A DNA stretch of 64,000 nucleotides from Macrocybe gigantea (taxonomy: Eukaryota > Basidiomycota > Agaricomycetes > Agaricales > Callistosporiaceae): NCBI GenBank assembly GCA_011319805.1, contig SJRY01000117.1, forward strand, positions 1 through 64,000, read 5' to 3'. The notes under the pieces are model-generated. The model had not been told where the DNA came from and did not search any database. It saw nothing but the letters and a program-made list of their open reading frames with translations. Position numbers and translations under genes: made by a program. Below are positions 16,777 to 54,309 of the stretch, piece after piece (the stretch's first letter is position 1; each line of letters opens with the position of its first letter).

Positions 16777-17402
16777 TCAAGCCAGAATCTTTGCTTGTCG
16801 CCGTGGGGAAGTCTTTGCTAGAATTTGTCGAGGCTGGTGGATGTGGGGCTTGAGGAGGTGGATGCTGGGAGTTTGGAGGAGCGGATGAGTGCGGTGGATT
16901 TGCCGGGGGATGACCTGCACTAGGATGAATTGGACCGTGTGAGGAAGGCGCAGTATCGCCTTGATCAGGCCGGGGGGCAAGTTTGCGCTGTGTATTTGCT
17001 GGGGATTCGCTCCACTTTTAAGAATGAAGCAGAATCCCAAGTCGAATTCTGACGTCTTGGGGAACACACACTCTGGGGGTTCGCCTTTCTTGTTCTTCCA
17101 CAAGTTCCTGAAGTCTTGCAAAGGGATGGAGGGTTGTATCAGGAACCCTACGACACCCAACTTTACCGCACAGTTAGCCTGCCACATGGGCTTTGAGGCG
17201 AAAAGAGATGGTTGCTCATCTCCCACGGGATGGAGGCAACTAAACGTCGAGAGGACTAGGTGATCGTCAGAGGCTTTATGGAAAGCATAGTTGCTTACTG
17301 TGGTTGCGGCAGGTCTCGCGGGACGAGTTGACTTTCTCGCACGGGCTTCAAGGGATAGGCGGACGCAACGCCAGCGAGGAAGAGTAGGACTGCTAAATGC
17401 AT
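16777..17402 (-). CDS. Gene A: small secreted four-cysteine protein, array member
   Basis: Two exons, 17402-17299 and 17239-16777, joined by a phase-2 GT-AG intron of 59 bp at the position used by all family members; about 188 residues. Exon 1 encodes a classical signal peptide (MHLAVLLFLAGVASA, then YPLKP) and a short propeptide-like stretch (ESQLVPRD). Exon 2 encodes the cysteine domain with four Cys: CLHP at the splice junction, ANC, EPPEC and GFCFIL. The tail after GANPQQ is read in a different frame from the tails of C, E, F and K and ends RRQAKILA. It lies in the left inverted arm as counterpart of gene F. Secretion is inferred from the signal peptide; function is unknown. Confidence 0.85.
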
Positions 17403-17439
17403 GTCAAGGAATGTGCTTGTTTCTTTTTTGGCCTGAAGG

Positions 17440-17600
17440 ATAGAAAGAACCGGCTTTCGCTGCCTTGGGCCACACCATCGAGTTTCGTTGCGCATTTATA
17501 ATGTGTTCATCATCAGTCGCTGTGAACGAGTGATATGAGAGGCCTTGATATGTTACGGCTGTTGGATGTTACATCGACCTAACAACGAGGTCGCTCCGTT
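17440..17600 (-). promoter_or_regulatory. Promoter block of gene A with CGACCT-N7-AGGTCG inverted repeat
   Basis: The conserved upstream block of the family is present on the minus strand: a 5'-UTR GGTTCTTTC pyrimidine tract and a perfect inverted repeat CGACCT-N7-AGGTCG at 17575-17593. The same arrangement lies upstream of E, G and, with changes, the other copies. This suggests a shared transcription factor site, but the function is only inferred. Confidence 0.5.
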
Positions 17601-17899
17601 GAACGGAAGAAAGTCTATCCCTGAGGCCTCCGATGAACTGAGGTCGATCAGACTTAGGTCTGAGGACATGGACTGGCTGTGAGGACGCAGCGCTCCGGCT
17701 AAGGTCGAAGGATGACCTGCCACACGCCACAGCTAGCTCGAAGGATGACACTACTCGTAATCTGTACCAGAAGTCGACGTCAGACGAGTGCCATCGGAAA
17801 TGCGGATGCCTATCTGCTGATATTATTTCAACGGGATAGGAAGGAGACTGCGGGTTCTTATGGGGGGCTAGCAAGCTATAAGTACAGTAGATAAGATAC

Positions 17900-19145
17900 A
17901 ACACCAGAGGATATCTAGCGAAATCCCTTAGCCGGGGTCTTCAGTTCAATTCGTTATATGTATTCCTCTTCGTCCATGTTGACCAAGGGCCAGTGCACCG
18001 TGACCTGAGCCCGTCCGTCCTCCGACTCGGGCTTCTTGGCGCATGTTATGGTCTCCTCGTAGTGATCCATCCCTCTAGCACAAAGCCGATCACGTCCGAT
18101 CACGCCTCTAGAGACTGGTCCGCTTCTCTCTGTTCTGCATCCAACTTCATCGTCTTACATACCTCATCGGGGTCGAACACGACAGGACACGGCGGGCCTC
18201 CCTCTGTGAGCGTCTTCCGGCCATTCGTTGCTTGTATCAACGCAGCCTTCAACGCGAGAGTTTCGCCCCTCTCACGGGTGACAGGTCACTGGCGCGGCGG
18301 AAAAGACAGAGGTGGAACATGCTTATGGGGTCCGCCAATGTCGCATAATGGAGTTCATTGTGCTCCTCCGTGTTTTTCATGACATTGCTCAGCTGGAGGT
18401 CGAGAATCGAGATGGTAGATACGGAGATGACTAGGGGCCCTGGCGATCAGTGCTGATGCGGTGCAGAGATAGGGGTTCAGGTGCTCGATGTGATCCGACG
18501 GTGCTGGTGCAGGTACCTGTGCACTTCCCTTCTTACGCGTTAGAACTACGACAACGGTCGACCGAACCTTCACTGCAAAAGATCTCGATGTCACCATCTA
18601 ATGGTATATCGAGTCTTAACTGCGACTGTCAGGTCCGAAGGTGCGCCAGCCTCGGAATTCTGTTCTGCCACAGCTCTCGTGTATCACGCCATAAATACAC
18701 TGTACTTTTTGGGCCAACGCTGATGATTGGTCGTCCGAATGCAGATGTAACATATTCTTCAAGTAGCGTTATGTTAGAGAATATAATCTCACCTTAGAGA
18801 GCACAAATGCACATGGTACGTTGATTGGGCAAAGCGGAGTTTAGAGAGCGCTGTTTAGGACCATAGCCTCAGTCTCTTGGAATTGTGAAAGGAGTGCCGT
18901 CTGTGACTCCAGGGCCGGCGATTCGAAAGCCCCACATGCGTTGCAGAATCTTGGTAGATCACGTCCTCGCGCGTCAAAGGGACTACGCTCTGAATGTAGG
19001 TTGGCTCATGAGCATCTTCATGAACGCATGAGCCAAGATCCAAACATCTAAGTATAAAGAAGAGACACGAGAGCATTACGACGATCCTCGCGAGCAAAAA
19101 GTCTATGTATGAGAGAAGAATGGTTGCGCCTGCCCGATAAGGCAA
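17900..19145 (-). other. Conserved segment between gene A and GCP2 (left arm); probably a decayed gene
   Basis: This segment is repeated in the right arm (about 34675-35950) and in part at 31240-31600 and 39230-39460. On the minus strand it has an 80-codon ORF (18597-18355, starting MVTSRSFAVK) that is identical at protein level in both arms, a block reading TLALKAA, and at its far end a peptide ending GEECM. These could be exons of one old gene, but no coherent model or recognised domain emerges. Identity between the arms reflects recent duplication and is not evidence of constraint. Confidence 0.4.
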
Positions 19146-19259
19146 ACCATTTCATTTCTTACGCTCCATCCACAGACTCAGGTTGAGCGCTGCGTGCTCC
19201 GAGCGCGTTGCACCATTTATCCACCACAAGTACACGTTATATCTCTCTAACCCACAGCA

Positions 19260-22200
19260 ATGGATCCTTATACCCCACGGACGCGCACGGGATCACGGAA
19301 GAAAAACCTGACGCTGTCAGCAAAGGAGTACACCAAAGTGAGTCTGTGGTGTGAATTTTACCGGAACGCGCTTTGCTCAATGGTGAATCTGCATCTAATG
19401 AGATTGCTGGGACGATCGCGTCGGTACGGAGGAACAGGCAGACTAACGGGGACATTGACGATGAATACGATACGCGCGGACACTCTTCGCGCGATGGCCA
19501 ACCTAGTACGCACCTCCCTGGACTTTTTCTCGTACGATAATACGAAATAAGACTCTTTCAAGACCGCAGAGACTCATCCTTTATCGAAGAAACGTCCTTC
19601 GTCCGCGCGCCGCTCAATTCTCGAGTGAGCTCTGTCGGTCTTCCGCCCAAGTCAAAGGGCAAGGAAAAGCAGGAACCGTTGGACCGCGTTCCGCTTGAGA
19701 TACAAGAAGGCATGATTTTGGAAGACTTGTTATTCGTTCTTATGGTATGCGGTATGCTTTCCTGACATTATTCGGCGCAATGAAACAAAGTCCGCCTTTG
19801 ACTTGCTAGGGAATAGAAGGAAACCATCTCACATACCACCCCGACTATTCCCGGGAGGACGACGATCCTCTCCAGGGTATTCGATTTGTTGCGTCGCCGT
19901 CTTTGGGTCCGTGTATTTTGCATGTTCGGCATCCTATCATGTTGAATCCTTTTGGTCTTTAGATACTTCCTTGCGTGATTTGGTGGAGCGTATTTTGCCA
20001 CTCGGAACGTATTATACAGCCATCTACGCGTTTATCGAGATAGAAGTCTCTGGACTATGGTCTCGTCAATCACGCTTTATGTGCAGCAATGAGAGATATG
20101 TTAAAGGTGCGCTTCATTGTATGATTTCATCGTGGACTAATGCAAGGATGACACCCTAAATTCCATAGGATTATCAGACGCTCTTATCGCAATTGGAACA
20201 TGCTTTCAATACATCTCCGCAGTTCACCCTCCAAAAGCTCTGGTTCTACGTCCATCCGACCATACACACGCTCTCGCTCATTTACCAGCTAGTCCTCGAG
20301 CTAGCGACTGCGGACGACCCGACCGGCGACTCCTCGTCGTCGTCTTCATCAGAAGTCGATCCAGAGGAGGAAGCGCGAAATGAAGCGCTCGGTCTCGGAG
20401 GCGCCAACCTCAAAGCGGTCCTTTCAGAGATCGGAAAGACCGAACTGGGCATGGCGGGCGGAAGTGGCATTCCAGTGAAGGGCGGCGAGGTGCTGACGAT
20501 CATATACGAGAGGAAGCTGAACATGGCTGGCGATCCGACCGCCAACACAATGTACGGAACTCTCCTAAAAGCGGCTGGGACGCCGTACGTGGCGATGCTG
20601 AAGGAGTGGGTCAGCACGGGGCGGTTGTCGGATCCGTACGAGGAGTTTTTGGTGAAAGAGAGCAAGTTCATCAATCGGGGTATTCTGGAGATGGACTACA
20701 CGGACGAGTACTGGGAGAGGCGGTATACGGTGCGTTTTCGTTTTCTGTCTTACATCTGGCGGCCTCATATCTGGTGCAGCTTCGAGATGGATCAACGTTG
20801 TCAGCACCGTCGAAACGCCATCAAGCCGGAGTCCCTCCACCGCGGACAGTCGGTGGACGTTTACCTGGCGGTGCATGCGTACCGCCCTTGCTAGAACACT
20901 GGAAGCACAAGGTCCTTCTGGCTGGCAAGTATCTCAACGTGATACGGGAATGCGGCATGGACATCGGTCGAGATCAAAACGATGTGAAATTGGAGGAGCT
21001 TTCGATGGACAATGAAAGGTGCGGAACCTCATGATTACTGTGCCCTGACGAAACTGGAAGGAGTTCGTTGTCTCCTTTTTTTTTTATCCCAGCTTTCAAA
21101 AATTCCTAGAAGCCGCGTATTCTTACGCGAATCGGACGCTGCTACAACTCCTGTTACGCGATCAGCAGCTCATTCCGCGGCTCCGGTCGCTGAAGCGATA
21201 CTTCTTCCTGTCACAATCGTTTTTCCTCACGCATCTGCTCGACCTAGCGTCCAACGAGCTGCGCAAGGCGTCCAAGTCCGTCTCTATCGTCAAGTTCCAG
21301 AGTCTTTTGGATCTCGCTCTGAATCAGGACGTGTCTGGAGACGACACGATGTTCCGTGAGGACGTCAAGGTCACTATAGCGGAGTCAGGACTCTACGAAT
21401 TCCTGTTAAAGGTTGTCAATGTGAGCGGAGTTATCGGAGGTGAAGAAGCGGACGATCATGGTTCAAGCCATCATGATGATCACAAGAAAGAAAAGGAGAA
21501 GGAAAAAGACGAAAAGAAGTCAATGACAGGTAATCTTTTACGCATCTAGATTTCCATGGCGCGTATCTAAACACCTACTTCAGCTGTGGACGCTTTGGCC
21601 TTGGACTACACCGTCAAATTCCCTCTATCGCTAGTGATCTCGCGCAAGACCATCCTTCGCTACCAATTACTCTTCCGCTTCCTGCTACACCTCAAGCACG
21701 TCGAGCAATCCCTGTCTTCGATGTGGATCGAGCAAAAGACGACACCGTGGCGTCGATCGATGCGGCATCACCCAGACTTTGACCGGTGGCGGCTGCGCGT
21801 GTGCCTCCTGCGCGCGCGGATGCTGTCCTTTGTGCAGCAGATCCTCGCGTTCGCGACGTTCGAGGTGCTGGAGCCGAACTGGCGCGCGCTGGAGGCGAAG
21901 CTGGACAAGGTGACGACGGTGGACCAGCTGCTGCGGGACCACGTGGACTTTCTGGACACCTGCCTGAAGGAGTGCATGCTGACGAGCTCGAAGCTGCTGC
22001 GGGCGTACTCGCGCCTGATCGTGACCTGCTCGACGTTCGCGCTGTACACGTCATCGTTCACCAAATCGGCCAACCAAGCCATCGCGGCGTCCGAGACACC
22101 AGAGGGGGACCTATCCATGGCGAAGCGGTGGGAGTTTTTGGGCAAGTTTGAGACCAATTTTAACCATTGGTGCGTGTGTCTTTTTTCTTGGAGAGTTGTG

Positions 22201-25170: not shown

Positions 25171-25799
25171 ATGCATTTAGCAGTCCTACTCTCCCTTGGT
25201 GGCGTTGTGTCCGCCTATCCCTTGAAGCCCGCGCAGGAAAGCCAACTCGTCCCGCGAGAGCCGCAGCAACAAGCTCAGTAAGCAATCAGCCTTTCCATCA
25301 TGCCTCTGACGTTGACCTATCTCTTTCCATGTTTAGTTGCTTCCGACCTATCAACGGTGTGCTACCGACCCTCGCATCCAGCTCGGCCATGCTGAGGGAG
25401 AGCTGTGAGGTCAGACTGGGTTCGGTAGGATGGCTTAGAAAACCCTCCATGCGTTTGCGGACGTTCAGGGACTCGTGGACCAGCGAACTAGAACCCCCAG
25501 AGTGTCTGCCCCCCCAGGGACCAGTCAGTGACGAGTTGGGTTACTGCTACGTTCTTCAAAGCGTAGTGCATCCACAGCGCCCACTTGCCCCCGGCCTGCT
25601 CAAGCCAATACTGCGCAGCCACCTCCGCATCCGCCTTCTTCATACGGTCCAAATCATTCCAGTGCAGCGCACTCAGCCGCTCCTCAAAACTCTCAGCATC
25701 CACCTCCTCAAGCTCCACATCCACCAGCCTCGACAACGGCGCGAAATGACACACATTCTAAAGACTTCCCCACGGCGACAAGCCCACATTCTGGCTTGA
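25171..25799 (+). CDS. Gene B: small secreted four-cysteine protein, array member
   Basis: Exons 25171-25277 and 25337-25799, phase-2 intron of 59 bp, 189 residues. The signal peptide MHLAVLLSLGGVVSA is followed by YPLKPAQESQLVPRE. Cysteines are in CFRP, ESC, EPPEC and GYCYVL. As in gene A, the Pro/Gln/His-rich tail is read in the alternative frame and ends RRQAHILA. It lies downstream of the Cue1-like gene with the standard family promoter and the conserved 3' flank (ATAATTTGCACGAGGAATG at about 25822). Confidence 0.85.
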
Positions 25800-25949: not shown

Positions 25950-26280
25950 TACGTGGGGAGTCATGTAAGAATGATGGAATACAACATGATAAAAACTCAA
26001 TGTGTGCAGGCCATTCATCTCGTTGTTCCGGCTGACGATCCCTTCAAGTCAGCCGACGTCCTGAAGATCCTAAACGCATGCTTCTATATTGACGCTGGCA
26101 TGTATGTCATTACAAAGGATGTAGGAGACCCCTTCGCAAGAGGTATTTTCTAAGAGACCATGACACGCAGCAAGAAGCTGAAGGAGGATGGATTGGCGGC
26201 GGCCGAGTCGGAGGAGGAATGGGCTCGGATCGCGGCCCACTGGCCCTTGAACGACATGGATGAAGAGGAATGTATGTGAT
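25950..26280 (+). pseudogene. Degenerate downstream ORF, ADDPFKSA type (copy after gene B)
   Basis: The plus strand reads VPADDPFKSADVLKILNA, an IDAG block and DPFARGIF, then a stop. After it comes an in-frame KKLKEDGLAAAESEEEWA block ending DMDEEECM and a stop. Similar pairs of blocks follow genes H and I and occur partly elsewhere. I do not recognise the protein. The single stop between the two blocks suggests a once continuous gene, duplicated with the array and now decaying. Confidence 0.5.
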
Positions 26281-26676
26281 GAATCGAGGGATTTCGCTGG
26301 TATCTTATCTGCTGCGTTCAAGAACCTCCAACCCTTCGAAGAAATATGACTGCGTCTTGCTAACTGCCAATGTTTCTGGGCAGATACTCGTAAACTGAGG
26401 TACCTGACCCACATATCTACATTGCATCAGCATAGTTGCCGAAACACCTGCTCACATCAGGTCTCCGGGACAGTATGTCTGACCGACCTCAGTTCATCCT
26501 GAGTGGTAGACTTTGTTCCAATGGTGAGCTACCTTGTTAGGTCAGTGTAACATCTAACGATTATAACAGATCAAGGGCTCTCATCACACGCTTAAGATGG
26601 AAAAAGTTATAAACGCGCAACAAAACTTCGGTAGTGTGGCTCAGGGCAAGGAAAGCTGGTCTTTCTATCCTTCAAA

Positions 26677-26703
26677 CCCCCCCCCCCCCCCAAAAAAAAA
26701 AAA
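26677..26703 (+). repeat. Homopolymer pair (C run then A run) in gene C leader
   Basis: About 15 C followed by 12 A lie where other family members have GGCC plus a short A run. Run lengths like these are prone to assembly error. Confidence 0.7.
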
Positions 26704-26731
26704 CTAGCGCATTCCTCCTGATCATACAGAA

Positions 26732-27288
26732 ATGCATTTAGCATTCCTACTCTTCCTCGCTGGCGTTACATCCGCCTATCCCTTGAAGCCTGCGCAGGCA
26801 AGTCAACTCGTCCCGCGAGAGCTGCCACGAGGACAGTAAGCAACTATGCTTTCCATCATGCCTCCGACGTTCACCTGTTTCTGTCAACGTTTAGTTGCTT
26901 CCATCCCGTGGGCGGCGAGGAGCCGGTCCTCAATCCCCACACGCGCACATATATGGTTAGGTGTGCGGAAATGTCAGGTGTGGTAGGGTGGCTTCCACAA
27001 CGACGGGGCGTGTCTTTGCGGGAGTACAGGGCTTCGTGGCCGGTCAGCCAAGGCGAACCCCCGGAGTGCGTCGTCCCTGTCCGGATACACATTGATGATG
27101 TGTTGGGTTACTGCTTTGTTCTTAAAAGCAGAGCAGGTTCCGCGGCAAATCCACCGCACTCAGCCGCTCCTCAAAACTCCCAGCATCCACCTCCAGCTCC
27201 ACATCGACCAGCCTCGACAAATTCTAGCAAAGACTTCCCCACGGCGACGAGCAAACATTCTGGCGTGACGTACCCGTTTGCTGGATGA
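26732..27288 (+). CDS. Gene C: small secreted four-cysteine protein, array member
   Basis: Exons 26732-26835 and 26895-27288, 165 residues. The signal peptide MHLAFLLFLAGVTSA is followed by YPLKPAQASQLVPRE. Cysteines lie in CFHP, VRC, EPPEC and GYCFVL. The tail is the common type, PQNSQHPPPAPHRPAST followed by DFPTATSKHSGVTYPFAG, shorter than in E and F. Downstream are the degenerate ORF (about 27450-27640) and a MAPR remnant, the same order as after F. Confidence 0.85.
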
Positions 27289-29020: not shown

Positions 29021-29024
29021 AGAG

Positions 29025-29730
29025 ATGCATTTAGCATTTCTACTCTTTCTCGCTGGCGTTGTGTCCGCCTATCCCTTGAAGCCCGCACAGGAAAGTCAAC
29101 TCGTCCCGCGAGAGCCGCCGCAACCACAGTAAGTAACTGTGCATTCTATCATGCCTCTGACATTCACCTCTTTCTGTCAATGTTTAGTTGCTTCCATCCC
29201 ATGAATGGTCAGACACCGATCCTCAATCCCAGTACGCTCACATACATGCGTAACTGTGCGGACAACCGGGATGCGGTAGGATGGCTTCCACAACCACCCT
29301 CCACGTCTTTGAAGGACTACAAGAAATTGTGGCCGGCCGTCCGAGGCGAACCCCCGGGTGTGTAGTCCCCCTGAAGAAACCAGATAAAGACAAGTTGGGT
29401 TTCTGCTTCGTTGTTCAGGGTGCAGCTAGTACCCCGGCAACTCAACATCGCCCAGCGCGCCCTCAAGTCTCCCAGCCTCCGGCTCCACCTTCCTCACCCA
29501 AGCATCTACCAACCCGGCCCACACAAATGAGCTCAGGCCGGGCTGGTTCCCCCTCCCCGCCTCCGCAGTCTCCACCTTTGACTCCACCTCTGGAGCAGGT
29601 GTTTCCGTCATATTCGCCGATTTCGTTATCGCCACCGGTGTCGCGGAGCACAACACCCAAGTCCGATGAGAAGATCTTGTTCCCGCATCCGAAGGGTGAT
29701 TCTTTCTGGGACCTCCATCCCCAACAATGA
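29025..29730 (+). pseudogene. Gene D: small secreted protein, array member, frameshifted at the third cysteine
   Basis: Exon 1 (29025-29128) encodes MHLAFLLFLAGVVSAYPLKP and exon 2 starts at 29188 with CFHPMNG. Near 29355 the usual EPPEC codons have lost one base (EPPGV, stop), while the following CVVPLKKPDKDKLGFCFVV continues in the next frame. The tail is of a third type, Pro/Ser-rich, ending LFPHPKGDSFWDLHPQQ; its decayed relatives follow G and I. If the lost base is a sequencing error the gene would be intact at about 202 residues. Confidence 0.75.
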
Positions 29731-31914: not shown

Positions 31915-32684
31915 ATGCGTTTAGCAGTCCTACTCTTCCTCACTGGCGTTGCGTCCGCCTATCCCTTGAAGCCGGCGCAAGAAAGTCAACTCGTCCCGCG
32001 GGACCAGCCGCAACCACAGTAAGCAACTATGCTTTCTATAATGCCTCTGACGTTCACCTGTTTCTCTCAATGTTTAGTTGCCTCTGCGAGGTGGACGGCA
32101 GGCGACCGGTTGCCGCATCCACACAGCCCATGTGGACGGCTACATGTGCGCTCCAGCCGGGTGTGGTAGGGATCCTTCTAGATACCTCCTTGTCTTTGAA
32201 AGACTTCAGGAAGTCGTGGGGGGACAAGAAACAGGAACCGTCCAAGTGTGTAATCCCCAAGGGATCAACACTTGGCGAGAAGGGTTACTGCTTCGTTCTT
32301 AAAAGTGTAGCGAATCCCTCAGCAAATACACAGCGCACACTTGCCCCCCGGCCTGCTCAAGGCGATATTGCGCAGCCATCTCCGCATCCGCCTTCCTCAC
32401 ACGGTCCAAATCATCCCAGTGCAGCTCATCCCCCGGCAAATCCACCGCACTCAGCCGCTCCTCCAAACTCCCAGCATCCACCTCCTCAAGCTCCACATCG
32501 ATCAGCCTCGACAAATTCTGGCAAAGACTTCCCCACAGCGACAAGCAAAGATTCTGGCTTGACGTACCCGTTTTCTGGACAACAATATCCACATCGATCA
32601 GCCTCAACAAATTCTAGCAAAGACTTCCCCACGGCGACAAGCGAAGATTCTGGCTTGAGATACCCGTCTTCTGGAAAACAATAA
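31915..32684 (+). CDS. Gene E: small secreted protein, longest array member
   Basis: Exons 31915-32018 and 32078-32684, 236 residues. The start is ATGCGT instead of the usual ATGCAT (MRLAVLLFLTGVASA, then YPLKP). Cysteines lie in CLC (one extra Cys), ATC, PSKC (usual EPPEC changed) and GYCFVL. The Pro/Ser/His-rich tail contains an internal duplication: the HRSASTNS, DFPTATS, DSGL unit occurs twice (about 32500-32580 and 32590-32675). The alternative tail frame (32341-32562) is also open and resembles the tails of A and B. The 3' flank and degenerate ORF follow, then the right inverted arm begins. Confidence 0.85.
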
Positions 32685-33139: not shown

Positions 33140-34560
33140 CCGATTGATGAACTTGCTCTCTTTCACCAAAAACTCCTCGTACGGATCCGACAACCGCCCC
33201 GTGCTGACCCACTCCTTCAGCATCGCCACGTACGGCGTCCCAGCCGCTTTTAGGAGAGTTCCGTACATTGTGTTGGCGGTCGGATCGCCAGCCATGTTCA
33301 GCTTCCTCTCGTATATGATCGTCAGCACCTCGCCGCCCTTCACTGGAATGCCACTTCCGCCCGCCATGCCCAGTTCGGTCTTTCCGATCTCTGAAAGGAC
33401 CGCTTTGAGGTTGGCGCCTCCGAGACCGAGCGCTTCATTTCGCGCTTCCTCCTCTGGATCGACTTCTGATGAAGACGACGACGAGGAGTCGCCGGTCGGG
33501 TCGTCCGCAGTCGCTAGCTCGAGGACTAGCTGGTAAATGAGCGAGAGCGTGTGTATGGTCGGATGGACGTAGAACCAGAGCTTCTGGAGGGTGAACTGCG
33601 GAGATGTATTGAAAGCATGTTCCAATTGCGATAAGAGCGTCTGATAATCCTATGGAATTTAGGGTGTCATTTTTGCATTAGTCCGCGATGAAATCATACA
33701 ACAAAGCGCACTTTTAACATGTCTCTCATTGCTGCACATAAAGCGTGATTGACGAGACCATAGTCCAGGAGACTTCTATTCTCGATAAACGCGTAGATGG
33801 CTGTATAATACGTTCCGAGTGGCAAAATACGCTCCACCAAATCACGCAAGGAAGTATCTAAAGACCAAAAGGATTCAACATGATAGGATGCCGAACATGC
33901 AAAATACACGGACCCAAAGACGGCGACGCAACAAATCGAATACCCTGGAGAGGATCGTCGTCCTCCCGGGAATAGTCGGGGTGGTATGTGAGATGGTTTC
34001 CTTCTATTCCCTAGCAAGTCAAAGGCGGACTTTGTTTCATTGCGCCGAATAATGTCAGGAAAGCATACCGCATACCATAAGAACGAATAACAAGTCTTCC
34101 AAAATCATGCCTTCTTGTATCTCAAGCGGAACGCGGTCCAACGGTTCCTGCTTTTCCTTGCCCTTTGACTTGGGCGGAAGACCGACAGAGCTCACTCGAG
34201 AATTGAGCGGCGCGCGGACGAAGGACGTTTCTTCGATAAAGGATGAGTCTCTGCGGTCTTGAAAGAGTGTTATTTCGTATTATCGTACGAGAAAAAGTCC
34301 AGGGGGGTGCGTACTAGGTTGGCCATCGCGCGAAGAGTGTCCGCGCATATCGTATTCATCGTCAATGTCCCCGTTAGTCTGCCTGTTCCTCCGTACCGAC
34401 GCGATCGTCCCAGCAATCTCATTAGATGCAGATTCACCATTGAGCAAAGCGCGTTCCGGTAAAATTCACACCACAGACTCACTTTGGTGTACTCCTTTGC
34501 TGACAGCGTCAGGTTTTTCTTCCGTGATCCCGTGCGCGTCCGTGGGGTATAAGGATCCAT
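33140..34560 (-). pseudogene. Truncated inverted copy of GCP2 (5' part only)
   Basis: This copies 19260-20678 in reverse orientation and stops inside the DPYEEFLVKESKFINR block. From the ATG (34560) to the break the protein differs from the main copy at only a few positions. In the exon near 33790-33720 it reads ENRSLLDYGLVNHAL without interruption, where the main copy lacks two bases; the truncated copy therefore keeps the family-like sequence. It lacks all downstream exons and cannot give a working GCP2. Confidence 0.9.
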
Positions 34561-34674
34561 TGCTGTGGGTTAGAGAGATATAACGTGTACTTGTGGTGGA
34601 TAAATGGTGCAACGCGCTCGGAGCACGCAGCGCTCGACCTGAGTCTGTGGATGGAGCGTAAGAAATGAAATGGT

Positions 34675-35950
34675 TTGCCTTATCGGGCAGGCGCAACCAT
34701 TCTTCTCTCATACATAGACTTTTTGCTCGCGAGGATCGTCGTAACGCTCTCGTGTCTCTTCTTTATACTTAGATGTTTGGATCTTGGCTCATGCGTTCAT
34801 GAAGATGCTCATGAGCCGACCTACATTCAGAGCGTAGTCCCTTTGACGCGCGAGGACGTGATCTACCAAGATTCTGCAACGCATGCGGGCTTTCGAATCA
34901 TCGGCCCTGGAGTCACAGACGGCGCTCCTTTCACAATTCCAAGAGACTGAGGCTATAGTCCCTAAACAGCCCTCTCTAAACACCGCCTTGCCCAATCAGC
35001 GTACCATGTGGATTTGTGCTCTCTAAGGTGAGATTATATTCTCTAGCATAACGCTACTTGAAGAATATGTTACATCTGCATTCGGACGACCAATCATCAG
35101 CGTTAGCCCAAAAAGCACACTGTATTTATGGCGTGATACGCGAGAGCAAGGGATCTGTGGCAAAACAGCATTCCGAGGCTGGCACACCTTCGGACCGGAC
35201 GGTCGCGGTTAAGCCTCGATATACCATTGGATGGTGACATCGAGATCTTTTGCAGTGAAGGTTCGGTCGACCGTTGTCGTAGTTCTAACGCGTAAGAAGG
35301 GAAGTGCACAGGTACCTGCACCAGCACCGTCGGATCACATCGAGCACCTGAACCCCTATCTCTGCACCGCATCAGCACTGATCGCCAGGGCCCCTAGTCA
35401 TCTCCGTATCTACCATCTCGATTCTCGACCTCCAGCTGAGCAATGTCATGAAAAACACGGAGGAGCACAATGAACTCCATTATGCGACATTGGCGGACCC
35501 CATAAGCATGTTCCACCTCTGTCTTTTCCGCCGCGCCAGTGACCTGTCACCCGTGAGAGGGGCGAAACTCTCGCGTTGAAGGCTGCGTCGATACAAGCAA
35601 CGAATGGCCGGAAGACGCTCACAGAGGGAGGCCCGCCGTGTCCTGTCGTGTTCGACCCCGATGAGGTATGTAAGACGATGAAGTTGGATGCAGAACAGAG
35701 AGAAGCGGACCAGTCTCTAGAGGCGTGATCGGACGTGATCGGCTTTGTGCTAGAAGGATGCATCACTACGAGGAGGCCATAGCATGCGCCAAGAAGCTGA
35801 CGCAGGGTGGATTGGCAGTGGCCGAGTTGGAGGAGGGACAGGCTCAAGCCTTGGACAGCCTGGACGGAGAGGAATGTATGTAATGAACTGAACTGAAAAC
35901 CCCGGCTAATGGATTTAACTAGGTATCCTGTGGTATTGTATTTTATCTGC
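34675..35950 (+). other. Conserved segment between truncated GCP2 and gene F (right arm)
   Basis: Counterpart of 17900-19145. ORFs at 34675-34950 (hydrophobic N-terminus, then TREDVIYQDSATHAGFRIIG) and 35231-35473 (MVTSRSFAVK) look coding-like. Further on are TLALKAASIQATNGRKTL (about 35570-35620) and a C-terminal KKLTQGGLAVAELEEGQAQ ending DGEECM, stop (to 35883). I suspect one old gene but cannot assemble it or name it. Confidence 0.4.
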
Positions 35951-36358: not shown

Positions 36359-37029
36359 ATGCATTTAGCAGTCCTACTCTTCCTCACTAGCGTTGCGTCC
36401 GCCTATCCCTTGAAGCCCGCGCAGGCAAGTCGACTCGTCCCGCGAGACCAGCCGCAACCACAGTAAGCAACTATGCTTTCCATCATGCCTCTGACGATCA
36501 CCTGTTTTTCTCAACGTTTAGTTGCCTCCATCCCGTGGATGGTCAGAAACTGGTTCTCGCATCCAAACAGGTCATGTACATGGCTAACTGTGCGCTCAAG
36601 CCGGATGCGGTAGGGTTCCTTATTATACAACCCTCCATCCGTTTAGACCAGTTCCGGAAGTCGTGGAGGAACAAGAAAGACGAACCGCCAGAGTGCGTGT
36701 TCCCCAAAGGGCCAGAACTTGGCGAGAAGGGTTTCTGCTTCGTTCTTAAAAGTATAGCGAATCCCCCAGCAAATATACAGCGCACACTTGCCCCCCGGCC
36801 TGCTCAAGGCGATACTGCGCAGCCATCTCCGCATCCGCCTTCCTCACACGGTCCAAATCATCCCAGTGCAGCTCATCCCCCGGCAAATCCACCGCACTCA
36901 GCCGCTCCTCCAAACTCCCAGCATCCACCTCCTCAAGCTCCATATCGATCAGCCTCGACAAATTCTAGCAAAGACTTCCCCACGGCGACAAGCGAAGATT
37001 CTGGCGTGACGTACCCGTTTGCTGGATGA
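36359..37029 (+). CDS. Gene F: small secreted four-cysteine protein, array member
   Basis: Exons 36359-36462 and 36522-37029, 203 residues. The signal peptide MHLAVLLFLTSVASA is followed by YPLKPAQASRLVPRD. Cysteines lie in CLHP, ANC, EPPEC and GFCFVL. The tail is the common type, Pro/Ser/His-rich, ending TSEDSGVTYPFAG; its alternative frame (36788-37009) is open too. It is the right-arm counterpart of gene A, yet the cysteine domains differ at many positions although flanking DNA is nearly identical. It is followed by the conserved 3' flank, the degenerate ORF (about 37200-37340) and the MAPR gene. Confidence 0.87.
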
Positions 37030-38173: not shown

Positions 38174-38661
38174 CGATACACAACTGGCAACTGCTCTGAT
38201 TACCGAATTGGATTTGCTCTCAGCCTCCCTCGCGCCCGCTATTGTCTCTGTTGCTGTGTCGTTAAGATTGACATCCAGTTCTTCAATGATTGTTCTGGCT
38301 ACTCTCGAAAGCTCATCGTCGACGAGGAAATTGGCGACCTACATCGGTAACTCACGAATACCTTTGCAACGGAGCGTGCGGACGACACGGATGGTTGGTT
38401 ACAATGGAGTGTAGTTGAGAAAGACATCTCATCAATTCGAAGGGTCCCAACAGCAAACGGCGTTGCAGAGATGATGGAGATGGTCACTCCATGGCACGTA
38501 TTGAATTCAGCTCCTCAGTCTGCTTTTGATATATGTTATCGTCTGGATTTGCTAAGAGCTCCTTTCGGTCATACATTCGACAGAACGAACGGCCTATTGC
38601 AGGGCTGGCCTTTTCTACCATTCAAAGGTTCAAGACAACCAGCCTGTTTGAATACTCCATC

Positions 38662-38740
38662 ATGCATTCCTTCTTTTCCTTGCCTGCATTGCATTCGCTT
38701 ACCCGATGCTAAGAACTGAACACTCGGAAAAGCCTGAACG
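38662..38740 (+). pseudogene. Decayed exon 1 of a secreted-family gene
   Basis: The stretch after ATGCATTCC reads, in a shifted frame, FLLFLACIAFAYPM followed by RTEHSEKPER and a GTAAGG donor at 38741. This matches the signal-peptide exon of the array with a small deletion after the ATG. No cysteine exon follows. Confidence 0.6.
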
Positions 38741-39801: not shown

Positions 39802-39830
39802 TCAGTGGTAGACTTTGTTCCGTTGGTGAG

Positions 39831-40023: not shown

Positions 40024-40424
40024 ATGCATTTAGCATTCCTCCTCTTCCTCGCTGGCGTTGCATCCGCATATCCCATGAATCCTAAGGATGAATCCTTCGC
40101 AGCACATGTGCGCCCAGGACAGTAAGTGCCCATGATTTCCATATTACCTCTAATGCTCACATATTTCTCTCGGCGTTTAGTTGTTTCCATCCCGTGAACG
40201 GTCAGGTACCAGTCGTCGGTGCCAGGGGGCGTGAATACCTGGCCCGATGTGCCACCAGGCCGCATGCGGTAGGGTGGCTTCCTCAACGACCTGGCATGTC
40301 CTTGAGAGATTACAGGAAAATCTGGATGGACCACGGAAGCGAACCCACCGAGTGTTTGTTCCCCGACCCCAACCTCCCACACGCTGAGGTGTTAGGTTTC
40401 TGCTTCGTTCTCCCATATCACTAG
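40024..40424 (+). CDS. Gene G: small secreted four-cysteine protein, short array member
   Basis: Exons 40024-40121 and 40181-40424, 113 residues. The signal peptide MHLAFLLFLAGVASA is followed by YPMNPKDESF and a shorter propeptide. Cysteines lie in CFHP, ARC, EPTEC and GFCFVL. The protein stops at LPYH, directly after the fourth cysteine, so it consists of the cysteine domain alone. From promoter through exon 1 it is almost identical to gene I, while exon 2 is very different. A decayed tail lies downstream. Confidence 0.83.
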
Positions 40425-41936: not shown

Positions 41937-42517
41937 ATGCGTTTAGCACTGCCACTCTTCCTGGCTGGCATTGCGTCCGCCTATCCCTTGAAGCCTGCGC
42001 AGGAAAGTCGACTCGTCCCGCGAGATCTGCCGCCAGGACAGTAAGCAACTATGCATTCTATCATGCCTCTGATGCTGACCTATTCCTCTCTACGTTTAGT
42101 TGCTTCCGAGCCATCGACGGTGTGCGACCGACCCTCTTACATGGAATGGTCATGCGCTTGGGCACATGTGCGGGCAAGCCGGGTGCGGTAGGGTGGCTTA
42201 CGCAAACCTCTCAGACTATGAAGGAGTTGAAGGACACGTGGGCGAACGGCGAAAGCGACCCCCATGAGTGTTTTCACCCCAAGGCAGCATACAGTGGCAA
42301 CAAGTTGGGTTACTGCTTCGTTCTTAAAAATGCAGCTCCTTCCCAGGCCAATCCACCGCACCCAGTCGCCCCTCAAAACTCCCAGCATTCACCCGGAAAG
42401 CCACATCCGCTTCTTCAAGTTCCACATCGACCGGCCTCGCCACCGCCCGAGTTCTACGAGAATGACTTGCACACGCATATGACCAAGTATACTAACTGGG
42501 GGTTTCCATCTCGTTAA
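41937..42517 (+). CDS. Gene H: small secreted four-cysteine protein, array member
   Basis: Exons 41937-42040 and 42100-42517, 173 residues. Start codon context ATGCGT, signal peptide MRLALPLFLAGIASA then YPLKPAQESRLVPRD. Cysteines lie in CFRA, GTC, PHEC and GYCFVL. The Pro-rich tail ends in a different motif, TKYTNWGFPSR, shared only with gene J, so H and J form a tail subgroup. The 3' flank with AATAATAAAAATTTCAG (about 42700) is the family type. Confidence 0.85.
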
Positions 42518-43647: not shown

Positions 43648-44138
43648 ATGCATTTAGCATTCCTCCTCTTCCTCGCTGGCGTTGCATCCGCATATCCCAT
43701 GAACCCTAAGGAGGGATCCTTCGCAGCGCATGTGCGCCCAGGACAGTAAGTGCCCATGCTTTCCATATTACCTCTGACGTTCACCTGTTACTCTCAATGT
43801 TTAGTTGCTTCCATCCCGTGCACGGTCAGCAACCGATGCTCAATCCCGATACACCCATAAGCGCGGCTGATTGTGCAGCCAAGCCGCATGCGGTAGGGTG
43901 GCTTCCGCCGCCGCCTTCCATCTCTTTGAAAGAGTACAAGGCATTGTGGCTGGACAGGGGAGATGGAGGCGAACCCACTGAGTGTCTGTCGCCCGGCACG
44001 ATACCCGGTCAGATGTTGGGTTACTGTTTCGTTCTTGATAGTAAAGCAGGTTCCGCGGCGAATCAAGCTCAACCTGGATCGCAACATACGCATGTTCGAG
44101 CCATTGCTCCGCACCCGCCTTCGTCCCCCTCACACTAA
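43648..44138 (+). CDS. Gene I: small secreted four-cysteine protein, array member
   Basis: Exons 43648-43745 and 43805-44138, 143 residues. Exon 1 nearly equals that of gene G (signal peptide then YPMNPKEGSF). Cysteines lie in CFHP, ADC, EPTEC and GYCFVL. The tail is short (AANQAQPGSQ to PSSPSH). The following 200 bp (to 44342) still encode, in other frames, the third tail type ending FYENVLFSHSS and WCPTPQ, so the present stop seems to result from a frame change. Confidence 0.8.
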
Positions 44139-44800: not shown

Positions 44801-45351
44801 TGAAGACCCTCGGTCATGGGATTTCGCTGTATATTCCATGGTGTCGTATCTTATCTGCTGCATTTATGGCATAAGAACCCCCAATTTCCCCTTGAAGTAA
44901 TATGAGCAGATGGGCGTCTTGCTAATCGCGAATATCTCCAGGCAGATACTCGTAAACTGAGATACCTGACTGCGATAGCCGCGAAACGGAAGAGACAAGC
45001 GAGAAAAAGCGTCGAACGAAAAATCCGAGAGTCACTGGCGTTGATTCGACAAGGAAAAGAGTACAAACGAGCGGCGACAGGTGATTGTTGATAAGTAACC
45101 CTCCCACTGGTGAAACACTGAGAAAGTCTGACTGACCTCAGTTCGTCGGAAGCCACACTGATAGACTTCTTTCCGCTGGTTAGCGACCTCGTTAGGTCAA
45201 TGTAACATCCAACAATCAACGTGTCTCATATCACTCGCTTACGGTGATGAGGAACGGGTTATAAATTCGCGTCAAAACTCGATAGTGTGGCTCAAGGCAA
45301 CGAAAGCTGGTTCTTTCTGTCCTTCAGGCCAAAAAAAACGCATTCCTTGAC
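44801..45351. other. Spacer and promoter region of gene J, with a small insertion
   Basis: About 44965-45110 interrupts the usual spacer. On the plus strand it reads a Lys/Arg-rich peptide (IAAKRKRQARKSVERK, then RQGKEYKRAA) that could be the end of a transposase-like ORF; this is only a guess. The family promoter follows, with a shortened inverted repeat (CGACCT-N4-AGGTCA near 45184). Confidence 0.4.
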
Positions 45352-46101
45352 ATGCATTTAGCAGTCCTACTCTTCCTCACTGGCGTTGCGTCCGCCTATC
45401 CCCTGAACCCAGCGCAGGCAAGTCGACTCGTCCCGCGAGATCTGCCGCAACCACAGTAAGCCACTATATATGCTTTCCATCATGCCTCTGACAGTCACCT
45501 ATTTCTCTCAACGTTTAGTTGCTTCCGACCCATGCCCGATGGCACGCTACCGGTTCTCGATCCCCCGGCACTCATGGCGATGACTAACTGTATGCGCAAG
45601 GCGGATGTAGTAGGGTTCCTGAGAAGACCCCCCAAGCGATTGCAGGATTACAGGCAAATCTGGCGGAACAAGCAAGGCGAACCCCCAGAGTGTGTGATTC
45701 CCATGGACAAAAACAATTACGAACAGGGTTTCTGCTTCGTTCGTCGAAGACCCTCTGCTCCCCCGGCAAATCAACCACCACAACCACCACCACAACAACC
45801 ACTACGCCCTATACTCCCTCGGCCTCCTGAAGCAAATGCTGCACACCCACTTGCTTCTCAAGCAAATGCCGCACGCCGGCTTGTCCCTATACTCCCTCGG
45901 CCACAAATGAACTCCGCCGCGCAAGCGCCTCCTCCGTCCCATTCTGCCCTCCAGCCTCCGCAGCACCCACCTGTGAATATATCTCCGCAGGCCGGGCATT
46001 CGTCACATGGACAAACCTTGCCAACGACACAAGACGACAGTGATTCTGGCTTCCCCACGACTATAAGCAACTATGCTGACTGGGGGTTCCCACCCCGTTA
46101 A
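45352..46101 (+). CDS. Gene J: small secreted four-cysteine protein, array member
   Basis: Exons 45352-45455 and 45519-46101, 228 residues. The signal peptide MHLAVLLFLTGVASA is followed by YPLNPAQASRLVPRD. Cysteines lie in CFRP, TNC, EPPEC and GFCFV. The long Pro/Gln/Ala-rich tail has a repeated ILPRP unit (about 45810 and 45890) and ends SNYADWGFPPR, as in gene H. It is the last gene of the main array. Confidence 0.86.
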
Positions 46102-49600: not shown

Positions 49601-50504
49601 TGGGATAACGTCGGAGAGGTATTCGGCGTTTCGTTCGGTGGGGACGAAAATATGGAATCGTTGTGCGACGTGGAAGAAGACGAGGCGGCGGAAAGGGATA
49701 TAGTCGGAAAATCGGGAGTTTGGGAACGTTGATCGCTTTTGTGGGAAGGGGACTGGAAAGGCGTGGTGGACGGGCCATTGGCGGTCGCTGGTATCGCATT
49801 AGCGAGCGTGGGCGTAGAGGACGAGGGAGACGAGCCGTTGCCTTGGCCATCTTGCTGTCTTTCTGTGTCCGATGATGGGCCAGCCATGTCAGCATTGGAG
49901 GGAGTGTCACGGGTCGACGAAGACGAAGCGATCGCGGAGTCCAATTTGGAGGAGTCTGGTTCAGAAAGATCAGTGTTGCTGACGTTTAAACGGGGCGAAG
50001 AGACGGCGGGGTCGAATATCTCGCTCGCTTTGAGAATTTTGGACAGGGCCTTGCCGGCCTTCTTTTCGTTCTTGAGGATCTCCTTGAGCGGGTCCTTGCC
50101 TCTTCTGCGCCGCTCCTTGGATCGCGAGGTGTTTTTTGCATCCTTACCGTCACTGCCACTGCCAGCGGCGGGGTATGCGTTACCTGGGGCAACCCTGGTG
50201 CCAGTTACGGCCTGCGACCTGGAAGAGGATGCAGTGCTGTTGTTGGCGTGATCGGTCGGTGCAGCGGCATCAGACGCCGGGCAGTCTGATTCTGTAGACG
50301 AGAGGGTGAGCACACGCGCATTTGACGGGTGGGAGGTCGACGAGACGCACCACGGCGGTGTGAATCAAGGAGGAGACGGCTTGGGAAGGACCTCCAGACG
50401 AGAGCGGCACCGACGAGGACGATCGTCGCGAGGGTTGTTGCGACGACAAGTGTGGAGTCGGTTGCGAGGGCAGAGTCGAGGCGCTCGCGGTCGCCGTCCT
50501 GCAT
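46682..50504 (-). CDS. Large low-complexity single-pass membrane protein with coiled coil
   Basis: Three exons on the minus strand: 50504-50354, 50291-48889 and 48763-46682, with consistent phases, 1,211 residues. The first exon has an N-terminal membrane segment (STLVVATTLATIVLVGAALVW, residues about 17-37). A basic stretch (SRSKERRRRGKDPLKEILK) follows, then long Ser/Pro/Thr-rich regions, and a coiled coil around residues 430-490 (LEAARLREEKAKVDLERATQ through WKHRETEV) that runs across the second intron into LQFQVQQLMQQ. The last exon is rich in Pro, His, Ser and Gly. No catalytic domain is recognised; the name is descriptive. It shares a divergent promoter with the amidotransferase gene. 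Confidence 0.82.
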
Positions 50505-51706: not shown

Positions 51707-51979
51707 TAACCCGCGTTCTTTCATATTTCCGGACACGCTATAGATGTAGAGTAAGGTAAACATCTATTCCATGCTTTTGAATGTCTTCCGCCCGGGAAGC
51801 GGCTAAAGGAAAATATAATCATTATAATATTACATGAAGATAAATAAACCGAAAAAGCGCTTGCGATCCTAGATGGTTCATCGACAATGATGTATGCGGC
51901 AAAAAGGGACGAGACAGAAAAGATCACAATAGACAGACGAACGTGGAGGGGATGGACTCCACACCGGAGAAGCATCCCT
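51707..51979. other. Short region between convergent genes; no gene
   Basis: 273 bp, AT-rich, between the amidotransferase and syntaxin 8 stop codons; it presumably holds both 3' ends. Confidence 0.6.
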
Positions 51980-53051
51980 CTATGTTTTGAACACGATAAT
52001 GAGTATCAAAAGGACGAGTATTAAAAGACCAATCGTCACAGTCGAGACTGCAAAACAAAGACATCAATAACCGAGACCTTCGAGACACAGCAAGGAACGC
52101 AACTGTTCTCCCTCGCGCCCTTGGCGACTCTGTCTAGCCTCCGTCTCGCACCAGACAGTCTGATGGCAGTATGATCGAGATCCGTGTCGAGTTCCTGCAG
52201 CAGCCCCGTATGAACGTCCAGCTCCTCATTGATCTGTAGCGAGAGGTGGTGCTGGCGGTTTATAGAGTGCGACAGCATGTCCAAGTGCTCGTCTTGTTCT
52301 AATTCAAAAGCCCATCAACACAAGTCGTGCAACCAATGGAAAAAAAACGGCGATGATGCGAAACGAAGAGACTCACCATCCATCATGCGCCGCTGCATCT
52401 GGATCATGCCGCTTGGCTCGTATCCCATCTCCGGGTCGTCCGTATATGGCGTATACACTGTCGGCTGCTCTTTCGTCGGTGCGTCCCCCAGCGCGAGCGG
52501 GGTCACATGGGAAGCAGGAAGCGCAAGGGACGCAGCGGGCGGAGGCGTGTGCGCGGACGACCCGGACGCCGAGTCCGCAGAATCATCCGTCACATCGGGC
52601 AGGTCGAGACTGGGCAAGAGTGAGCCAACGCCAAGCGAACACAGCGGCAAGAAAAGCAGAAATGCGACAGTCTCAGTGACGGCTGGGGACGTGTGAGAAA
52701 CGAAAGATGAGAACCGCACCTCTCGACGTCGACGTCGGGCCTGACCATCTCCCGCATGCGCTCGTACTGGCTCCTGAGGAGCTCCACCGCCTCGGACTGC
52801 CGGCCCTCCTTCGCCTCGAGCTCCAGGATCCCGCTGCGCAGTCGCTGCAAGTTCTTTGTGATCTGTGGCAAGTGGCGCGTGTCGTGCGTGCTCGTGCTCG
52901 TCGCCGTCATCGTCATTGTTGTCGTCGCGGACGCGGCCGTCGTGGCTGCGGTCGACGAGGCGGCGAAGGAAGATAGGGACTGTAGCCGCTGGCGCTCCAA
53001 CAGTAGCGAGAGAGTTTGGGTAGAGAGCGAGGTCAATTTGGCGAGGGACAT
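51980..53051 (-). CDS. Qc-SNARE, syntaxin 8-like
   Basis: Four exons: 53051-52720, 52609-52377, 52298-52104 and 52047-51980, 275 residues. Syntaxin 8-type SNAREs act in endosome and vacuole fusion as the Qc helix of a four-helix SNARE bundle. The N-terminal part (LAKLTSLSTQTLSLLLERQR and EAVELLRSQYERMREMV) is helical, followed by an acidic linker. The SNARE motif runs from MQRRMMDEQDEHLDMLSHSI through ELDVHTGLLQELDTDLDHT, with the central Gln expected in ELD..TGLLQ. The C-terminus is a tail anchor (VTIGLLILVLLILIIVFKT). An Ala/Thr-rich stretch at residues about 30-55 is low complexity. Confidence 0.87.
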
Positions 53052-53728
53052 CCTTGTTCTTTTCGTTCCTATGAAGTTTTCTCTGTATGTTGCCTTTCTT
53101 CTCTTCTTCCTCGCTTTGCCCCCGTTTACTATACCCAGTCGTAATTGAGACTGTTACCTTGTGCGTGAGGGTACTGTCTGTATGTGTGTCACAACCACAA
53201 GTAAGCGCTAGCCGACGATAGGGATATAGGAGAAAGGTAAGGGTATATGGACCGCTGTATGACGAACGGGATCGACGGTGGGTACAAAGAACTGTGAGAG
53301 CCACAACACAGTCAAAGTTTCGGACCTCGCAGATCAGCACAGACCTGCATGTACTCAAGACCCCTCTAGATGTTGCTGCAAGACTGCATATTAATATCGG
53401 TGTATGTACAACTACCGAAAGACTACTTCAACAAGGGTGCGAGGTTATTTCTGGCAGTTTGCAGAGAGAGGTACGGCCGTTGTTGCAGCGGACGGTGTCT
53501 GGTGTCCAACTGCCTAGGAATATTCAAGGCGTCGCTCGGTATGTACTCTTGGCAGACTTGAAGGGATCGTCAGCCGGAACAGCATCGTTGAGAACGACAA
53601 CACATTGCATCGTGATTGGGATGCAATGCATACATTCTGACATCCCATAATGACATGACAATCGCAAAACACCCCCTATTTCTCCAATCCGTAAAACCCG
53701 TGGTTTCGTCGCGCATTCCTCGTGCAAA
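53052..53728. other. Spacer with a MAPR exon 1 remnant
   Basis: On the minus strand around 53465-53430 a piece of MAPR exon 1 is recognisable (TARNNLAP) without its start codon. It is preceded (53540-53470) by the same upstream sequence as the MAPR copies at 16.05 and 37.6 kb. The position relative to gene K is the same as MAPR relative to genes A and F. Confidence 0.55.
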
Positions 53729-54309
53729 TTATTGTTTTCCAGAAAATGGGTACGTCAAGTTAGAATGTGGGCTCTTCGCCGTGGGGAAGTCATTCTTAGA
53801 ATGTGCGCCGTTTTGCGCCGTTGTCGAGGCTGGTTGATGTGGAGCTTGAGGAGGTGGATGCTGGGATTTTTGAGCGGCAGCTGGTTGCGGTTGATTTGCC
53901 GCGGAATCTGCTTTGCTTTTAAGAGTAAAGCAGTGACCTAACTTGTCACTGAATGGCTCCTGGGGGAGCAAACACTCTGGGGGGTCGCCGAGCTCGCCGT
54001 TCTTCCACAAGTTCCTCAACTCCCCCACAGACTTGGAGGTGGAGGTTACCTCAATCCACCCTACCCCACCCTTGCCCTTACATGTGCCCATGTACATGTT
54101 TCTTCCGTTGAGAGCCGGTTGCTCACCGTTCAGGGGTCGGAAGCAACTAACCATAGGGAGAACTAGGTCAGCGTCGGAGGCATGATAGAAAAGATAGTTG
54201 CTTACTGTCCTTGTGGCCAATCTCGCTGGACGAGTCGACTTTCCTGAGCAGGCGTCAAGGGATAGGTGAATGCAACGCCAGTGAGGAAGAGTAGGACTGC
54301 TAAATGCAT
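53729..54309 (-). CDS. Gene K: small secreted four-cysteine protein, outlying family member
   Basis: Exons 54309-54206 and 54146-53729, 173 residues. The signal peptide MHLAVLLFLTGVAFT is followed by YPLTPAQESRLVQRD. Cysteines lie in CFRP, GTC, DPPEC and GHCFTL. The tail is the common type (QHPPPQAPHQPAST, then DFPTAKSPHSNLTYPFSGKQ). It lies 8 kb from gene J, past the amidotransferase and syntaxin genes and on the opposite strand, but carries the family promoter, intron and 3' flank. It was therefore moved or duplicated as a complete unit. Confidence 0.86.

What the first reader, a model, noticed from the sequence alone, without database searches (positions are those of the whole stretch)
16777..54309. 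An array of eleven paralogous small secreted four-cysteine proteins of unrecognised family
Ten genes between 16.8 and 46.1 kb and one at 54 kb share the same two-exon layout, a signal peptide of the MHLAVLLFLAGVASA type, the stretch YPLKPAQES-LVPR, and a domain with Cys at the splice junction, C-x5-[AV]VG[WF]L, E-P-[PT]-E-C and G-[YF]-C-F-V-L, followed by a Pro/Ser-rich tail. I cannot match this to a family I know. Clustered, secreted, cysteine-containing and fast changing, they look like candidate effectors or a self/non-self or surface family.
Basis: partly seen in the sequence, partly recalled or inferred. Interest (0 to 1): 0.88.

Follow-up and report, generated by a model that had tools for sequence, protein, structure and literature searches.

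The report
Fast-evolving secreted fungal four-cysteine protein array
A fungus carries a duplicating row of genes for small secreted proteins in which the signal, control DNA and intron stay nearly the same while one four-cysteine domain is driven to change, as in an arms race; its partner and its job are still unknown.

Summary
Eleven genes (16777-54309) share a signal peptide, a phase-2 intron (59 nt in 10 of 11) and an exon-2 domain with four cysteines. The copy at 29025 has a broken frame. Three more two-exon loci (one broken) lie on overlapping contig C143: 14 in the genome, 12 with an open domain. No relative was found in Pfam, NCBIfam, PDB sequences, PDB or viral folds, or a 5.8-billion-protein set; a control shows that set holds few relatives even of an F-box neighbour, so absence from other fungi is not shown.

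New result: promoter, exon 1 and intron (and usually tail and 3' flank) are alike, but the ~230-base domain between them is not. The domain differs more than the intron in 66 of 66 pairs of open copies. A site model puts 41% of domain codons at dN/dS 3.2 (2dlnL 67.7; highest 6.3 in 20 neutral simulations), while cysteine codons are almost frozen. The tail is neutral. Two members covered by two contigs show no substitution between them, against an allelic self/non-self system.

Best reading: a conotoxin-like arsenal of secreted binding domains in an arms race with outside proteins. Target, expression and species are not established.

The parts
16777..17402 (-). Member m1: exon 1 17402-17299, intron 17298-17240, exon 2 17239-16777; open domain; tail read in a non-Pro/Ser frame. 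Same locus is on C143:7084-7709.
25171..25799 (+). Member m2: exon 1 25171-25277, intron 25278-25336, exon 2 25337-25799; open domain; tail in the shifted, basic frame
26732..27288 (+). Member m3: exon 1 26732-26835, intron 26836-26894, exon 2 26895-27288
29025..29365 (+). Member m4: exon 1 29025-29128, intron 29129-29187, exon 2 29188 on; frame broken in the domain (stop before Cys3); degenerate copy or assembly indel
31915..32684 (+). Member m5: exon 1 31915-32018, intron 32019-32077, exon 2 32078-32684; one extra Cys in the domain
36359..37029 (+). Member m6: exon 1 36359-36462, intron 36463-36521, exon 2 36522-37029
38655..38740 (+). Degenerate exon-1 relic, ATG lost, no domain found behind it; a like relic at C143:46259
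40024..40424 (+). Member m8: exon 1 40024-40121, intron 40122-40180, exon 2 40181-40424; variant pro-region (YPMNPK...), almost no tail
41937..42517 (+). Member m9: exon 1 41937-42040, intron 42041-42099, exon 2 42100-42517
43648..44138 (+). Member m10: exon 1 43648-43745, intron 43746-43804, exon 2 43805-44138; variant pro-region as m8
45352..46101 (+). Member m11: exon 1 45352-45455, intron 45456-45518 (63 nt), exon 2 45519-46101
53729..54309 (-). Member m12: exon 1 54309-54206, intron 54205-54147, exon 2 54146-53729
18031..20678 (+). 5' part of a gamma-tubulin-complex gene region, duplicated inverted at 33140-35797 (98-99% in three blocks) with neighbouring family members; the full gene continues to about 22233
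33140..35797 (-). Inverted partial copy of 18031-20678 inside the array
4746..11260 (-). Ty3/Gypsy-type retrotransposon with identical 320-base ends (4746-5065, 10941-11260), absent at the matching place on C143 (about 13222-13227); marks a moving locus

Best explanation
The array is an expanding repertoire of secreted proteins in an arms race with proteins outside the fungus. Shown: shared gene anatomy; tandem, inverted and segmental duplication; conserved promoter, signal peptide, pro-region and intron around a four-Cys domain that diversifies mostly at loop positions under positive selection; nearly fixed cysteine codons; a tail evolving without detectable constraint on its amino acids. Inferred: the signal peptide is removed and the 14-residue pro-region (YPLKPAQESQLVPR) may be cut after Arg; the four cysteines make two disulfides holding a small alpha/beta scaffold; the changing loops are the face that binds a moving protein target of another organism (a host, prey, grazer or competitor), as an effector, toxin or inhibitor. 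Duplication plus selection keeps many variants in one genome, as in conotoxin families.
For: 11 same-anatomy genes in the window, 14 two-exon loci in the genome. Domain less alike than the intron in 66 of 66 pairs of 12 open copies, and than exon 1 in 66 of 66, than 200 upstream bases in 65 of 66. Sharp profile: about 0.8-0.9 identity upstream, exon 1 and intron, 0.55-0.74 over the domain, 0.8-0.96 behind it for 8 core members. Within segmental copies: m1/m14 domain 0.81 against 0.91-0.99 around it; m3/m6 domain 0.62 against intron 0.93 and tail 0.94. m5/m13 domain Ka 0.23, Ks 0.06. M2a over M1a 2dlnL 67.66 with 41% of codons at omega 3.24, and 95.80 on the 5'-flank tree (M0 lnL agrees with IQ-TREE's); 20 neutral simulations gave 0-6.27. 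Of 20 sites with posterior above 0.9, 14 lie in coil, 3 in helix, 2 in strand and 1 where the modelled copy has a gap. Cys codons by position TGC 10/12, TGT 12/12, TGT 10/12, TGC 11/12. Tail pooled ps 0.135, pn 0.137 in 15 pairs of 6 members. TATAAA within 200 bases upstream in 11 of 14.
Against: No expression, target or phenotype data. One-ratio omega is only 1.32 (p = 0.028) on the domain tree and 1.00 on the 5'-flank tree. Nei-Gojobori Ks in the domain is itself about twice the intron distance (medians 0.47 and 0.24; 65 of 66 pairs); same-residue fourfold sites (0.238 against intron 0.197) suggest much of that is a counting effect, but homogenised flanks or recombination (domain rejects the 5' tree, p-AU 0.0003) may add. 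In m5/m13 the tail is as diverged as the domain (0.826 and 0.836). Broken or shifted frames (m4, m15, tails of m1 and m2) could mean decay of part of the array, or assembly indels. The simulations printed numerical warnings.
Confidence: 0.6

Rival explanations
1. Host-directed effectors: the proteins act on a living plant (or other host) and vary to escape its recognition.
For: Secreted, small, cysteine-holding, clustered in a transposon-rich duplicating locus, positively selected, all usual effector traits (recalled).
Against: Species and lifestyle unknown. Gene content points to a cellulose degrader: GH7 at 4 places (two identical pairs), AA9 in 45 exon matches, CBM1 22 matches, laccase-type 23 matches. 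Nothing in the data names a host.
Confidence: 0.25
2. Defence or attack proteins against microbes, nematodes or insects: toxins, or inhibitors of their secreted enzymes.
For: Anatomy and selection pattern equal that of toxin and anti-toxin repertoires (conotoxins, PMC3823881 passages; snake small serum proteins, PMC7150969 passages). Likely saprotroph gene content.
Against: Domains are not uniformly cationic (net charge -4 to +8 over 12 copies), so a simple membrane-active peptide is unlikely; no match to any toxin or inhibitor family.
Confidence: 0.3
3. Self/non-self recognition or mate-specific signals of the fungus.
For: Secreted diverse paralogues in one array; the basidiomycete non-self system is poorly known (recalled).
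Against: No substitution between two contigs in the 2 of 2 members that could be compared (m1 and m13), whereas allorecognition genes are usually rich in alleles (recalled).
Confidence: 0.08
4. No arms race: flanks are homogenised by gene conversion and the domain just escapes it, drifting under weak constraint.
For: Domain rejects the 5' tree; m8/m10 share a 95.8% identical stretch of about 404 bases over promoter, exon 1 and intron with dissimilar flanks on both sides; domain NG86 Ks is raised too.
Against: Drift cannot give codon classes at omega 3.2 next to frozen cysteine, Val and Gly codons, and neutral simulations did not come near the test value. The 5' alignment does not reject the domain tree (p-AU 0.085).
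Confidence: 0.12

Closest known systems
Conotoxin gene superfamilies
   Same: Signal sequence and pro-region conserved, mature domain hypervariable between conserved cysteines with position-specific Cys codons, gene duplication plus positive selection (PMC3823881, passages seen).
   Different: Fungal, four cysteines in a 74-78 residue domain, no sequence relation found; venom function cannot be assumed.
Small serum protein arrays and venom phospholipases A2 of pit vipers
   Same: Tandem array of small secreted Cys proteins with accelerated coding change measured against introns (PMC7150969, passages seen).
   Different: Other fold family (10 cysteines, four exons in the serum proteins); animal.
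Powdery mildew candidate secreted effectors of the RNase-like group (RALPH)
   Same: Many clustered small secreted paralogues under diversifying selection, short intron (listing only; intron feature recalled).
   Different: No Pfam, PDB-sequence or PDB-fold match here; element order of the model differs from the RNase T1 type (recalled).
Amanita MSDIN toxin precursors
   Same: Conserved leader with a hypervariable core in mushrooms (PMC10356791 listing only; leader feature recalled).
   Different: MSDIN cores are short cyclic peptides without signal peptide (recalled); here a disulfide domain with signal peptide.
Hydrophobins
   Same: Small secreted Cys proteins in basidiomycete families (PMC3879219 listing only).
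   Different: Eight cysteines in a fixed spacing (recalled); here four, and no Pfam match.

Membership tests
Any family of Pfam-A or NCBIfam | Profile match | tested here: not met
   0 families for 3 whole proteins at E <= 10 and for 10 of 10 domains at E <= 1 in each library
Any family with a solved structure | Sequence or fold match in PDB | tested here: not met
Conotoxin-like precursor organisation (works like, not member) | Conserved prepro part, hypervariable Cys domain, position-specific Cys codons, positive selection | tested here: met
Conotoxins (membership) | Homologous superfamily signal sequence and Cys framework | not tested
   No sequence comparison with conotoxins was made; only the general libraries were searched
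Hydrophobin | Eight cysteines in hydrophobin spacing | tested here: not met
   Domains hold 4 Cys in 10 of 12 open copies, 5 and 6 in the others; no Pfam match
RNase-like (RALPH) effectors | RNase T1-like fold | tested here: inconclusive
   No PDB match of either model, one model good (pLDDT 85.8) but the five models disagree in confidence (69-86)
Fungal secreted effector | Signal peptide and secretion | tested here: inconclusive
   Signal-peptide-like start read in 11 of 11; no predictor or experiment
Fungal secreted effector | Induced on host contact and acting on a host | not testable with these tools
   No RNA-seq or host data
Allorecognition (self/non-self) genes | High allelic diversity | tested here: inconclusive
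   No substitution between contigs in m1 and m13, one individual, 2 members, and m1 contigs may be one haplotype there

The most novel reading that the evidence does not exclude
A protein fold family not yet described, used by a mushroom-type fungus as a conotoxin-style arsenal: one exon-delimited disulfide domain is turned over by selection inside a duplicating cassette of constant promoter, signal, intron and 3' end, giving a gene-encoded repertoire of secreted binders against other organisms' proteins.
Probability: 0.3. Interest if true: 0.78.

Novelty: new member of a known kind. Interest (0 to 1): 0.52.

Why it matters
Fast-changing secreted protein arrays mark the molecules on which an organism's encounters with others turn. 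Here the selected residues, the constant scaffold and the limits of the variable cassette are mapped in a family without known relatives, so structure, target and use can be tested directly. If the targets are microbial or animal proteins, the array would be a natural library of small disulfide-held binders.

Tried and rejected
Known-family assignment: Pfam, NCBIfam, PDB sequences, PDB folds, viral folds (best E 1.9) and 5.8 billion proteins (27 candidates: 84 candidates, none at E <= 10) gave nothing. The control with the neighbouring F-box protein found only 4 proteins, so this set is a poor test for fungi. Papers: searches listed no paper that I could match to this family; only titles and abstract starts were seen, except passages of PMC3823881 and PMC7150969.

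Species: ITS and 28S were read and a laccase piece compared with PDB; I could not name the species. 'Fungus, probably a mushroom-type basidiomycete' is inference.

Pure gene conversion or drift was considered and is kept as a rival. Cationic antimicrobial peptide rejected as a general rule: charges run from -4 to +8. The C259 copy was first spliced with a wrong acceptor and gave nonsense; it has promoter and exon 1 but no recognisable domain.

Dropped before counts: the two frame-broken copies (m4, m15) from all pair, codon and site analyses; C143:7084 (same locus as m1) and the C149 copy of m13 were counted once.
Full report
What is there. Eleven genes of one family lie between 16777 and 54309. 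All have the same two-exon plan: exon 1 codes for a signal-peptide-like start and a pro-region (mostly YPLKPAQES-LVPR; YPMNPK... in 40024 and 43648), then a phase-2 intron that is 59 nt in ten and 63 nt in one, then exon 2 whose first full codon is Cys1. The domain runs about 74-78 residues to G-[YFH]-C-[FY]. Ten of eleven have an open domain; the one at 29025 is stopped before Cys3. The tail is Pro/Ser-rich in most but is read in another frame in 16777 and 25171 and almost absent in 40024.

The family in the genome. The window is contig C117:1-64000 of a 41.2-Mb assembly in 333 contigs. C117:11260-24489 matches C143:13227-1 at 99.86%, so C143:7084 is the same locus as 16777. C143 adds two-exon members at 39567, 43881 and 82948 (the last frame-broken); C149 holds a 99.7% copy of 39567. 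That makes 14 two-exon loci, 12 open. There are also exon-1 relics at 38655 and C143:46259, and a copy on C259 with promoter and exon 1 but no domain found. These are counts of what single-query searches with capped candidates returned; very diverged members could be missed.

The locus moves. A gamma-tubulin-complex gene near 20-22 kb has its 5' part copied, inverted, at 33-36 kb, and C143:3809-8744 and 40625-45527 are 93.6% alike with a family member in each. A Ty3/Gypsy element at 4746-11260 has identical 320-base ends and is missing from the matching place on C143.

The key result. Along the gene the mean identity of eight core members is about 0.8-0.9 from -240 to the end of the intron, drops to 0.55-0.74 in the domain, and returns to 0.8-0.96 in tail and 3' flank (over all 12 the tail is lower, about 0.6-0.75). 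In 66 of 66 pairs of the 12 open copies the intron is more alike than the domain. In the segmental copies m1/m14 the domain is 0.81 identical against 0.91-0.99 for the segments around it, and m3/m6 has 0.62 between an intron at 0.93 and a tail at 0.94; in m5/m13, however, the tail (0.826) is as diverged as the domain (0.836).

Selection. Nei-Gojobori medians in the domain are Ka 0.55 and Ks 0.47, against 0.24 for the intron and 0.18 upstream; pn exceeds ps in 46 of 66 pairs. Ks is thus raised too. At codons with the same residue, fourfold third positions differ by 0.238 on average, near the intron (0.197) and exon-1 fourfold sites (0.187), so part of the Ks rise comes from multiply hit codons. 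One-ratio omega is 1.32 (p 0.028 against 1) on the domain tree and 1.00 on the 5'-flank tree. With site classes, M2a beats M1a by 2dlnL 67.66 (17% of codons at 0.09, 43% at 1, 41% at 3.24), and by 95.80 on the 5'-flank tree. The code is my own; its one-ratio likelihood equals IQ-TREE's (-2316.25). Twenty data sets simulated without positive selection gave 0 to 6.27 (with overflow warnings in the optimiser). Recombination can inflate such tests and was not modelled: the domain alignment rejects the 5' tree (p-AU 0.0003), the 5' alignment does not reject the domain tree (0.085). Cys codons are TGC 10/12, TGT 12/12, TGT 10/12, TGC 11/12, and the invariant Val and Gly before the variable stretch are GTA 12/12 and GGG 11/12. 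In-frame tails of six members are neutral, pooled ps 0.135, pn 0.137.

Structure. AlphaFold2 on ten domains gives pLDDT 85.8 and pTM 0.73 for the first member (other four models 69-78), and 66.3 when another member leads, with the same main order: strand, short helix near 20-24, strand 29-34, helix 40-47, strand near 67-75. Selected sites are mostly in coil: 14 of 41 coil, 3 of 13 helix, 2 of 20 strand residues. No match in PDB or viral folds. An unseen fold is possible but not shown.

What it does. The combination of a constant secretion part, a selected loop surface on a fixed Cys scaffold, duplication and many variants per genome is that of toxin, anti-toxin and effector repertoires (PMC3823881 and PMC7150969, passages). 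I take it as a secreted binding domain in an arms race with proteins of other organisms. Whether these are hosts, prey, grazers or competitors is open. The gene content suggests a cellulose degrader without clear class II peroxidase (3 weak peroxidase-family matches, 2 over the cut-off; GH7, AA9, CBM1, laccase matches), which leans slightly to antagonist-directed use; six-frame exon matches are a crude guide. Self/non-self is less likely: no substitution in m1 or m13 between the contigs that cover each twice (m13 shows a one-base gap in the tail and a three-base gap near its end), although for m1 the two contigs are almost identical for about 8.6 kb and may be one haplotype there. Single-base gaps between contigs show that assembly indels may underlie some broken or shifted frames.

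Limits. No expression data, no species name, no fungal proteome search. The 5.8-billion-protein set found only four relatives of the neighbouring F-box protein, so its silence on this family says little about other fungi.

Noticed in passing
4746-11260: Ty3/Gypsy-type element with 100% identical ends, absent at the matching place on C143; another partial copy at 1-2991 (98.8% to 7746-4746) and two inverted copies at C143:17887-24182 and 26249-32552.
   Followed up: partly
18031-20678 and 33140-35797: The 5' part of a gamma-tubulin-complex gene was duplicated inverted into the array together with family members; further copy at C143:40625-43233.
   Followed up: partly
39802-40205 and 43426-43829: Promoter, exon 1 and intron of two members are 95.8% alike while the DNA on both outer sides is unrelated and the domain differs: looks like a conversion or module-swap tract.
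   Followed up: partly
L051 and L052: Two 5.8S rRNA loci with unlike scores (162 and 146 bits) on different contigs: a second, diverged rDNA copy.
   Followed up: no
G000:C113:44263-84990: At least seven Cu-oxidase (laccase-type) first-domain matches within about 41 kb: a laccase cluster.
   Followed up: no
57871-58914: ORF whose end (…YKYVLDVR…DGNGWSGRFKRLI…) recalls glycosyltransferase family 90; Pfam gave no match at E <= 0.001.
   Followed up: no
46685-50364: Two long, low-complexity Ser/Pro-rich ORFs on the minus strand (693 and 512 codons) without Pfam match, beside the array.
   Followed up: no
L019:3400-4500: Family remnant on C259 with intact promoter and exon 1 but without a recognisable domain; a downstream frame ends in WGFPPR like the tails of 45352 and (WGFPSR) 41937.
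   Followed up: partly
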